A DNA stretch of 64,000 bases from a virus. The DNA is taken from positions 1 to 64,000 of the IMG/VR virus record IMGVR_UViG_3300047357_001427. The stretch is one strand, 5' to 3'. Each line of letters begins with the position of its first letter. The stretch's first letter is position 1. The notes under the pieces are model-generated. The model saw only the letters and a program-made list of their open reading frames with translations. It did no database searches and was not told the origin of the DNA. Of this stretch, positions 60,561 to 62,293 are shown in pieces. The position numbers and the translations under genes were made by a program.

Positions 60561-61652
60561 ATGAGAAAAAAACTAATACAATCGATAGCGTCCTTATTAC
60601 TAGACAATCCAGTATCTAAATACGTTAAAAAGAATAAATTTTCAGAAAAAAAATTAAATGTTTCTGAGCATCCTGCAGATAAAAGAGATTGGGTTCATGT
60701 CTCTCAGTATTTAAAATCCGAAAGCGTCAACAGCAAGGAATTCTCCAGAAGATCACTATGCGTAAGCGTCGCTAACCAAGGGTCAATAGGTTCATGCGTG
60801 GGCCACAGCGGAAGGGTTGTTCTTGGTTCGGCTAGTGCGTTCAAGAACGAAGAGCCAAGCCCTATGTGGATATACAAGACCGCTAAAAAATACGACCCAT
60901 GGGCCGGTGAAGATTACTCAGGAACATCAATCAGGGGTGCTGCTAACGCATTAATAAACGAAGGTTGCTGCTTTGAAAGCTTTTGGCCATATATAGATAG
61001 CGAATCCAGCAACCCCAAAGAAGGAGCAAAAGAAGACGCTGGACTCAAAAAGATTAGCTCCTACCACGTTATACCCTGCTCTGAAACAGAAGAGATTAAA
61101 AGGATGGTGATTGACCGTCCACTTTGGTATGCGTTCAAAGTCAGGGATTATTTTTTTTCCATTGGCTATGACGGCATTGTTGATACAGAAAAATACCTAG
61201 CATCAGAGGTTGCAGGCGGCCATGCGGTATGCCTCATTGGTTGGAAGTATATAAACGACAAGCTTTACTGGGAATTCCAAAACAGTTGGGGTTTATTTTT
61301 TGGAAACTCTGGCTACTTTTTTATGGAGGATTCCTTATTTAAGTTTTCTATCATGAACTCTATTGGCCCTTACTATGTAGAGTTTTCGGATGGGTTTGTT
61401 AATCCAAAACCAATTGACCCCGAACCAGAACCAGAGCCAGAGCCTGTAGAACCAGAACCAGAACCTGTAGAACCAGAGCCAGAACCTGTAGAACCAGAAC
61501 CAGAACCTGTAGAACCAGAACCAGAACCTGTAGAACCAGAACCAGAGCCTGTAGAACCAGAACCAGAGCCAGAACCCAAGAAAAGCAAAAACATACCATT
61601 GATAATTTGCGCAATAGTTGTGATTCTGGCATTGATCATATCCTCTAGTTAA
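60561..61652 (+). CDS. Papain-like (C1) cysteine peptidase with PEP repeats and C-terminal membrane anchor
   Basis: 363 aa. Papain-type catalytic set: Q73 and C79 in NQGSIGSCVGHS, H221 in GGHAVCLIGW, N241 in FQNSWG. No signal peptide. Residues about 285-339 are a Pro/Glu-rich linker with six VEPEPEP-type units. Residues 345-363 (IPLIICAIVVILALIISSS) form one membrane helix at the very end, so the protein is probably tail-anchored with the protease facing the cytoplasm. Typical phage peptidases lack this. Possible role in host takeover, superinfection or lysis timing. 26 bases after Nudix; one-base overlap with the next gene. Confidence 0.85.
   Translation: MRKKLIQSIASLLLDNPVSKYVKKNKFSEKKLNVSEHPADKRDWVHVSQYLKSESVNSKEFSRRSLCVSVANQGSIGSCVGHSGRVVLGSASAFKNEEPSPMWIYKTAKKYDPWAGEDYSGTSIRGAANALINEGCCFESFWPYIDSESSNPKEGAKEDAGLKKISSYHVIPCSETEEIKRMVIDRPLWYAFKVRDYFFSIGYDGIVDTEKYLASEVAGGHAVCLIGWKYINDKLYWEFQNSWGLFFGNSGYFFMEDSLFKFSIMNSIGPYYVEFSDGFVNPKPIDPEPEPEPEPVEPEPEPVEPEPEPVEPEPEPVEPEPEPVEPEPEPVEPEPEPEPKKSKNIPLIICAIVVILALIISSS
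61418..61578 (+). repeat. Tandem 21-bp repeats encoding PEPEPVE units
   Basis: Six 21-bp units encode VEPEPEP and vary at third positions (gaa/gag, cca), so the protein is under selection rather than a pure DNA expansion. The array lies inside the linker of the cysteine peptidase. Confidence 0.85.
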
Positions 61653-61969
61653 TGAATTTAATCATAGATTCAACTCTATCCGAACCACCCAGTGAGATAT
61701 CCTGTTTCAGGGACGTGACCATGTATAGTAAAGTGTTTCATTTTGAAAACGTACTGCTTTCCTGCAAGATGGGTACAAGATCTATGTACTGGAATTGGTT
61801 GAAGAATAACGGCGCTCATGATTTTATCTCCTATGTTCTCCACGAGGGGGAGCTGGAGTCTGGCGCATTAATCCATCCCAAAAAAGGAGATATAGTTGTA
61901 GATAGAATAAATGCACTAAACCTAAACTACATAATAACTAGACTCAAAAAAATATCAGACAATTTATAA
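61652..61969 (+). CDS. Hypothetical protein
   Basis: 105 aa, no signal peptide or membrane segment, no recognised motif. It starts by a TAATG overlap with the protease gene and stops directly before the spanin candidate, so it is in the same operon. It may work with one of these neighbours; nothing more can be said from the sequence. Confidence 0.5.
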   Translation: MNLIIDSTLSEPPSEISCFRDVTMYSKVFHFENVLLSCKMGTRSMYWNWLKNNGAHDFISYVLHEGELESGALIHPKKGDIVVDRINALNLNYIITRLKKISDNL

Positions 61970-62293
61970 ATGAAAAAATATCTATTAATTTTAATCATCC
62001 CCTTTTTGCTTAATTGTTCTACATTTAAAAAAAGTAAAAACACTAATAACTCGACAAGTATACAACAAGTTATACCAAGCATTAATGATTTCAATAAAGC
62101 TGATATAAATAAAGACCAAGTTATAGATAAAAATGAATCAATTAAATTTTTTAATAAAAATAATTCAATAGACTACGATACTCCTTTTGCAGTTTTCTCT
62201 ATACTGTCAACTATTGTTATGGTTATTTGTTTTTGGCCGATAGTTTATTCTTATTTAACGTCGTTAATTAAAAGATTCAAGAATCGTTCTTGA
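61970..62293 (+). CDS. Small lipoprotein with EF-hand and C-terminal membrane helix, unimolecular spanin candidate
   Basis: 107 aa. Signal MKKYLLILIIPFLLNC ends in a lipobox (LLNC, Cys16). A Ser/Asn-rich linker follows, then an EF-hand-like loop (DINKDQVIDKNE, about residues 43-54, with D, N, D, I and E at the calcium positions), then a membrane helix at about 72-97 (FAVFSILSTIVMVICFW). A lipid anchor at one end and a membrane helix at the other is the layout of unimolecular spanins, which join outer and inner membrane for lysis. The stretch between them is short. A plain membrane-bound lipoprotein is the alternative. Confidence 0.55.
   Translation: MKKYLLILIIPFLLNCSTFKKSKNTNNSTSIQQVIPSINDFNKADINKDQVIDKNESIKFFNKNNSIDYDTPFAVFSILSTIVMVICFWPIVYSYLTSLIKRFKNRS

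What the first reader, a model, noticed from the sequence alone, without database searches (positions are those of the whole stretch)
61970..62293. Spanin candidate with an EF-hand loop
Lipobox at Cys16, C-terminal membrane helix, and a DxNxDxxID..E loop (DINKDQVIDKNE) between. This is the unimolecular spanin layout, with an apparent calcium site that could gate lysis by periplasmic calcium. The periplasmic stretch is short, which argues for caution.
Basis: partly seen in the sequence, partly recalled or inferred. Interest (0 to 1): 0.55.

Follow-up and report, generated by a model that had tools for sequence, protein, structure and literature searches.

The report
Phage envelope lipoprotein with calcium loop
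An uncultured phage, probably marine, carries a small protein built like the single-piece tethers some phages use to break the outer membrane of their host, and its middle carries a genuine-looking calcium-binding loop that is kept in many related phages but missing in others.

Summary
The ORF at 61970-62293 is as described: lipobox-type signal (FLLNC16), EF-hand loop at residues 45-56, C-terminal membrane helix. The loop is not chance: a profile of 22 relatives matches EF-hand proteins of the PDB at E 3e-10. In a gene family recovered through a conserved 144-aa neighbour, 54 of 80 loci encode a lipobox + C-terminal-helix protein overlapping that neighbour; 16 of 41 distinct sequences have a strict EF loop, 0.04 expected by shuffling. 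But 24 of 41 lack it, so the loop is optional. A lysis role is likely, not shown: a PHROGs 'holin' gene lies in the cassette in 13 of 80 loci, and the following GAF gene has a relative beside endolysin and holin in phage P12024S. Against: 57-residue linker, no holin beside the window gene, no endolysin family over cut-off in ten records, helical rather than beta periplasmic part. Reading: u-spanin-like tether with a structural EF-hand, a new variant of a known kind; calcium gating is unsupported.

The parts
61970..62293 (+). 107-aa lipobox / EF-hand / C-terminal membrane-helix protein (u-spanin-like)
   Evidence: ORF and translation; near relatives 94-99% in 5 viral contigs; divergent relatives
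61970..62017 (+). signal peptide with lipobox FLLNC, lipidation Cys16; Ser at +2
   Evidence: sequence; Asp at +2 in 0 of 41 family sequences; -2 Leu and -1 Asn non-consensus
62018..62080 (+). flexible linker, residues 17-37
   Evidence: AF2 pLDDT under 50 at 19-32; fast evolving, dN 0.515 for 17-38
62081..62161 (+). helix-loop-helix (residues 38-64); EF loop DINKDQVIDKNE at 62102-62137 (residues 45-56)
   Evidence: AF2 helices 38-44 and 54-64; profile to PDB EF-hands E 3e-10; invariant F41, D45, E56
62189..62245 (+). C-terminal transmembrane helix (residues 74-92 by hydropathy; AF2 helix 70-106), basic tail after it
   Evidence: hydropathy, AF2
61652..61969 (+). 105-aa protein of unknown function; its stop codon abuts the start of the lipoprotein gene
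   Evidence: homologues near the 144-aa/lipoprotein cassette in many related loci
60561..61652 (+). papain-family (C1) protease with (PEPEPV)n linker and C-terminal membrane helix; gene neighbour, role in the same process inferred
   Evidence: PF00112 E 1.2e-15; Cys79, His221, Asn241 invariant in 10 relatives (catalytic assignment recalled)

Best explanation
The gene encodes a u-spanin-like tether. The N-terminus is lipidated on Cys16 and (inferred) sorted to the outer membrane, while the C-terminal helix stays in the inner membrane. Late in infection, once the wall is opened, the tether helps bring the two membranes together so that the outer membrane breaks. The middle holds one real EF-hand. 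In the calcium-rich periplasm of a seawater bacterium it is most likely always loaded and acts structurally: it folds the middle of an otherwise floppy linker and, because single EF-hands tend to pair (recalled), may drive side-by-side pairing of tethers, or may shield the linker from proteolysis. Shown by sequence: layout, EF-hand, family, gene order. Inferred: lipidation, sorting, calcium binding, pairing, lysis role, and all steps of the mechanism.
For: Layout conserved: 54 of 80 loci carrying the 144-aa two-helix gene have a lipobox + C-terminal-helix ORF starting at exactly +431, overlapping its stop codon; 41 distinct sequences; Asp at +2 in 0 of 41. At the window's own gene position the layout recurs in L013 and L014 and, without EF loop, in L086 and L088. 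EF-hand: strict loop in 16 of 41 against 0.038 expected by shuffling; Glu at loop position 12 in 17 of 17 although the classifying pattern did not require it; the best 60 PDB profile hits shown are EF-hand proteins, top E 3.1e-10; Foldseek's 6 weak PDB hits are calcium sensors or EF-hand proteins, including the synthetic homodimer 1cta. Lysis link: phrog_9987 'holin' E 1.8e-11, gene directly upstream of the 144-aa gene in 13 of 80 loci; GAF gene downstream in 54 of 54 lipoprotein loci and 1 of 26 others; its relative in Nonlabens phage P12024S lies next to an endolysin (phrog_894, 4.8e-45) and a holin (phrog_3427, 3.2e-31). Bacteroidetes phages are reported to use only unimolecular spanins (PMC12596118, passage); a Flavobacteriaceae MAG contig carries the 144-aa gene with flanks of the window-type phages.
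Against: Periplasmic part short: 57 residues here, 34-40 in EF-less relatives. No holin or endolysin beside the window gene; Amidase_2, Phage_lysozyme, M15_3 and SLT gave 0 of 10 records each, M15_4 one sub-threshold hit (the records may be fragments). The 144-aa protein is not recognised as a holin: PF11351 in 0 of 8 records, hhalign to the P12024S holin probability 0.2%. T1-type u-spanins are beta-rich; this one is modelled helical. No spanin family matches P0001; its best PHROG is of unknown function, E 0.0032. Lipobox non-consensus. No spanin with an EF-hand appeared in the papers searched, so the analogy is architectural.
Confidence: 0.55

Rival explanations
1. Inner-membrane periplasmic regulator: lipid and helix both sit in the inner membrane, the EF-hand hairpin lies in the periplasm, and the protein controls its coupled membrane partner (the 144-aa protein) or the GAF sensor, for example in lysis timing or superinfection sensing.
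For: Very short linkers (34-40 residues in EF-less members); strict coupling to a two-helix membrane protein and a membrane-anchored GAF protein (GAF PF01590 E 1.2e-8).
Against: Asp at +2, the inner-membrane retention signal of E. coli, in 0 of 41; in window-type phages the lipoprotein gene is not adjacent to the 144-aa gene, so gene order does not require obligate partnership.
Confidence: 0.2
2. Calcium-gated spanin: periplasmic calcium changes switch membrane fusion on or off.
For: Genuine EF loop under purifying selection.
Against: Loop absent in 24 of 41 distinct family members at the same gene position and in L086/L088 at the window's position; seawater calcium should saturate a single EF site (recalled chemistry).
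Confidence: 0.08
3. Surface or superinfection-exclusion lipoprotein unrelated to lysis.
For: Phage lipoproteins of that kind exist (recalled); in the window the neighbours are a protease, an unknown gene and ribonucleotide reductase, not lysis genes.
Against: C-terminal membrane helix, and holin-PHROG / GAF neighbourhood in relatives.
Confidence: 0.08
4. Accessory of the upstream membrane-anchored protease: the EF-hand lipoprotein anchors, regulates or resists that protease.
For: EF loci with at least 4 kb upstream: 15 of 19 have a C1, M64 or S8 protease against 3 of 23 EF-less loci; papain is upstream in the window.
Against: Not independent: tree-aware pairing leaves 2 supported pairs (4 on all branches) and cannot reach significance; 4 EF loci lack any of the three proteases.
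Confidence: 0.09

Closest known systems
Unimolecular spanins (T1 gp11 type; PMC6139136)
   Same: N-terminal lipidation signal, C-terminal membrane helix, no cysteine in the periplasmic part of P0001
   Different: EF-hand helix-loop-helix instead of beta-rich domain; short linker; no sequence match; no adjacent endolysin
Cellulophaga phage phiST gp017 (phrog_20921, function unknown)
   Same: Lipobox LLSC and C-terminal helix, 149 aa; weak match to P0001 over residues 1-70 (PHROG E 0.0032; tblastn E 1; sequence)
   Different: No EF loop; longer; match not significant and partly signal peptide; neighbours are annotated hypothetical and structural proteins
EF-hand superfamily (calmodulin-type loops)
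   Same: Loop ligands 1, 3, 5, 9, 12, hydrophobic 8, flanking helices; family profile E 3e-10 to PDB EF-hands
   Different: Single hand without intramolecular partner; Gln at position 6 in P0001; single sequences below the Pfam cut-offs
Nonlabens phage P12024S lysis region
   Same: Membrane-anchored GAF gene beside lysis genes
   Different: Has an M15 endolysin and a recognised holin; no lipobox ORF seen between the tail-fibre-like gene and gene 16

Membership tests
Unimolecular spanin | N-terminal lipidation signal | tested here: inconclusive
   FLLNC in P0001 is off-consensus at -1 and -2; many relatives carry LSGC or similar. AWAC, also off-consensus, works in gp11
Unimolecular spanin | C-terminal transmembrane domain | tested here: met
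   hydropathy 74-92, AF2 helix 70-106
Unimolecular spanin | outer-membrane sorting signal (no Asp at +2) | tested here: met
   Ser17 in P0001; 0 of 41 relatives with Asp; sorting itself not shown
Unimolecular spanin | part of a holin-endolysin lysis cassette | tested here: inconclusive
   window: not seen. Relatives: holin PHROG in 13 of 80; five endolysin families without a hit over cut-off in 10 records
Unimolecular spanin | no periplasmic cysteine (58 of 58 in the census) | tested here: met
   P0001 has Cys16 and one cysteine in the membrane helix only
Unimolecular spanin | beta-rich periplasmic domain (T1 gp11 family) | tested here: not met
   AF2: helix-loop-helix, no strand. A feature of the T1 family, not of all u-spanins by definition
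Unimolecular spanin | complements an RzRz1 lysis defect / fuses membranes | not testable with these tools
   needs bench work
EF-hand | 12-residue loop with ligands at 1, 3, 5, 9, 12 and hydrophobic at 8, flanked by helices | tested here: met
EF-hand | profile similarity to proven EF-hands | tested here: met
   family profile E 3.1e-10. Single sequences stay below Pfam cut-offs (best L028 23.6 bits of 25.9; P0001 10.2 of 25.4)
EF-hand | occurs in pairs | tested here: not met
   one loop per protein in the 22 aligned; pairing between protomers untested
EF-hand | binds calcium | not testable with these tools
   needs bench work
Holin (for the 144-aa neighbour in relatives) | recognised by a holin family model | tested here: not met
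   no Pfam or PHROGs family for the L016 copy at E up to 0.5 and 0.1; best PHROG of 6 members 0.14, none named holin; PF11351 0 of 8; hhalign 0.2%

The most novel reading that the evidence does not exclude
A class of phage membrane tethers in which a single EF-hand, folded and paired by seawater-level calcium, is the collapsing or oligomerising element that draws inner and outer membrane together, replacing the beta or coiled-coil parts of known spanins: a calcium-folded minimal fusogen, gained and lost as a module inside one gene family.
Probability: 0.13. Interest if true: 0.8.

Novelty: new variant of a known kind. Interest (0 to 1): 0.58.

Why it matters
How unimolecular spanins work is stated to be unknown (PMC6139136, section 13), and cyanophages are prominent among its 'spanin-less' phages. 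A family of 73-111-residue lipoprotein tethers with and without an EF-hand at the same gene position is a natural experiment: it would define how short a spanin can be, and whether a calcium-folded module can serve as its structural part. It also gives a gene-neighbourhood handle (144-aa gene, GAF gene) for finding outer-membrane disruption genes in uncultured phages.

Tried and rejected
Direct sequence searches for relatives of P0001 gave only near copies: 5 contigs; its 12-row profile found 6; single divergent members found only themselves. tblastn of P0001 and of the L027 and L118 members against 50,697 cultured phage records: no significant match; likewise the 144-aa and 60-aa neighbours. 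The family was therefore recovered by gene neighbourhood.

Rejected: calcium gating as main reading; the EF loop as chance; the 144-aa protein as a proven holin. The EF-hand/protease association looked strong by count (15 of 19 against 3 of 23; the 12 of 54 loci with under 4 kb upstream left out) but fails a tree-aware test. Foldseek against BFVD gave nothing; against PDB only E 6-10 hits. Only one genome contigs locus was found, a 4,476-base Flavobacteriaceae MAG contig, too weak to name a host. Literature: the listings of searches showed no paper describing an EF-hand spanin; PMC6139136 and PMC12596118 contain neither 'EF-hand' nor 'calcium' in the main text. Of PMC6139136 I saw the abstract, passages and sections 13 and 15; of PMC7830690 and PMC12596118 passages only; other papers as search listings. 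PMC6206483 (T1 u-spanin localisation) is not held.

Full report
The observation. The signal peptide ends in FLLNC with Cys16; the lipobox is unusual because -2 is Leu and -1 is Asn, where the consensus quoted in PMC6139136 is [LVI][ASTVI][GAS]C. Residues 45-56, DINKDQVIDKNE, have Asp/Asn/Asp/Asp/Glu at loop positions 1, 3, 5, 9 and 12 and Ile at 8; Gly at 6 is replaced by Gln. A 19-residue hydrophobic helix starts at 74 and a basic tail follows. The start codon abuts the stop codon of the preceding 105-aa gene. Six of 29 checked gene starts in the window have a Shine-Dalgarno-like core upstream.

Where it is. The window lies in a 70,922-base IMG/VR virus record. Upstream are genes for the ribonucleotide reductase large chain (named by its phage relatives), a Nudix protein, a papain-family protease with a (PEPEPV)n linker and C-terminal membrane helix, and the 105-aa unknown; downstream is the ribonucleotide reductase small chain. 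No other sense-strand lipobox ORF was seen in the record by a simple scan, and no recognised lysis gene lies next to it.

Finding its family. P0001 itself finds only near-identical copies, so I followed its neighbours. Relatives of the papain gene led to L013-L029, where a lipobox / EF loop / C-terminal helix protein lies a short way downstream again and again; in L023-L025 the neighbour is instead a small lipoprotein without that layout. In L016-L022 and L026-L029 the lipoprotein gene overlaps a 144-aa two-helix gene. A profile of that 144-aa protein found 113 relatives, of which the best 80 were kept.

What the 80 loci show. In 54 of 80 a lipobox + C-terminal-helix ORF starts at exactly +431 of the 144-aa gene; 25 have none there and 1 has a long ORF. 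The 54 hold 41 distinct sequences. By a loose pattern 17 of 41 (23 of 54 loci) carry an EF loop, 24 of 41 (31 of 54) do not. The strict pattern is met by 16 of 41 against 0.038 expected from shuffled segments; the sequences are related, so this is a count and not a probability. Loop position 12 is Glu in 17 of 17 although the classifying pattern did not ask for it. Asp at +2 occurs in 0 of 41. On a tree of 56 of the 144-aa proteins the EF label needs 5 changes, so the EF-hand looks like a module gained or lost several times, though well-supported branches alone do not exclude one origin.

The EF-hand is real by profile. In an alignment of 22 EF-bearing members C16, F41, D45 and E56 are invariant, with I52 and P72 nearly so. 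Its profile hits 541 distinct PDB sequences at E up to 1; the best 60 shown are EF-hand proteins, top E 3.1e-10. AlphaFold2 (mean pLDDT 73.8, pTM 0.37) gives helix 38-44, loop, helix 54-64, then a long helix 70-106; residues 19-32 are below 50. Foldseek has 6 weak PDB hits (E 6-10), all calcium sensors or EF-hand proteins, one of them the synthetic homodimer 1cta; the viral library gave nothing of note. Against the 64%-identical L013 protein dN is 0.144 in the EF segment and 0.515 in the linker; the counts of changes are small.

Is it a lysis protein? For: in 13 of 80 loci a 60-63-aa gene precedes the 144-aa gene, and the L016 copy matches phrog_9987 'holin' at 1.8e-11. A membrane-anchored GAF protein gene (PF01590 E 1.2e-8 for the L078 copy) follows in 54 of 54 lipoprotein loci but only 1 of 26 others. 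Its relative in the isolated flavobacterial phage P12024S (tblastn 9e-15) is directly followed by an M15 endolysin (phrog_894, 4.8e-45) and a holin (phrog_3427, 3.2e-31). PMC12596118 states that Bacteroidetes phages use only unimolecular spanins (passage), and a Flavobacteriaceae MAG contig holds the window-type 144-aa neighbourhood; binning makes that weak. Against: none of this is adjacent to the window gene; near relatives of the window phage carry the 144-aa gene elsewhere on the contig, with no lipoprotein gene after it (L133, L139, L141, L144). Amidase_2, Phage_lysozyme, M15_3 and SLT gave 0 of 10 records, M15_4 one sub-threshold hit, with records possibly incomplete. The 144-aa protein is not recognised as a holin.

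Length. Between Cys16 and the helix lie 57 residues; relatives at the 144-aa site have 47-60 with EF and 34-40 without. The shortest two-component spanin pair in the census has 62 (PMC6139136). At about 0.34 nm per residue (recalled) 57 residues reach at most 19 nm, and roughly 12 nm if an EF-hand is folded (own estimate). Either the host periplasm is narrow, or membranes are already close where the tether acts, or both anchors lie in the inner membrane (rival 1).

Mechanism. I take it as a u-spanin-like tether whose EF-hand is structural. In seawater (about 10 mM calcium, recalled) the site should be filled as soon as the segment reaches the periplasm, so gating is unlikely; folding, pairing between protomers or protease resistance are the likelier uses. 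The last idea rests on a count: 15 of 19 EF loci with at least 4 kb upstream have a C1, M64 or S8 protease gene against 3 of 23 EF-less loci, but 2-4 independent pairs cannot establish it. That the phage is marine is inferred from its relatives and was not looked up.

The protease next door. The upstream protease varies in kind: papain, subtilase (PF00082 1.4e-45) or M64 (PF09471 1.6e-8). Papain and subtilase versions share a P- and E-rich linker, a membrane helix and, in L005, L013, L014, L089, L075 and L137, a similar tail around a short W/F-D motif after the helix, as if different catalytic domains sit on one chassis. The window's own copy ends just after the helix.

Novelty. The layout is that of a known kind, the unimolecular spanin; the EF-hand, the shortness and the cassette are not described in the papers that my searches returned (listings and passages only). 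Verdict: new variant of a known kind, function inferred.

Noticed in passing
60561-61652; L005 6229-7683, L013 6001-7200, L014 6001-7203, L089 3758-5017, L075 3674-4813, L137 5-1114: Swappable membrane-anchored protease chassis: papain or subtilase domain, then a P- and E-rich linker, a C-terminal helix and a shared tail with a W/F-D motif. The window copy lacks the tail.
   Followed up: partly
L120 3251-4753, L117, L118, L121, L122, L098, L132, L089: M64-type peptidase upstream of the 144-aa/lipoprotein cassette (family shown for L120 by Pfam; others by tblastn).
   Followed up: partly
L078 5655-6245 and equivalents in all 54 lipoprotein loci: Membrane-anchored GAF-domain protein always following the lipoprotein; relatives in Nonlabens and Microcystis phages.
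   Followed up: partly
61652-61969; L078 3047-3361: Conserved 105-aa protein without any family match, repeatedly near the protease or lipoprotein genes.
   Followed up: no
61399-61579 (window), L005, L004: The EPEPEPV repeat of the papain gene varies widely in copy number between near-identical phages (window protein 363 aa, L004 421 aa, L005 484 aa in all).
   Followed up: no
L023 5713-5982, L024 616-891, L025 5731-5976: Another small lipoprotein without EF loop or membrane helix, divergently next to the papain gene in three related phages.
   Followed up: no
L027 8743-9522: Gene downstream of the cassette with sub-threshold sigma-70 region 2 similarity (E 1e-4), perhaps a late sigma factor.
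   Followed up: no
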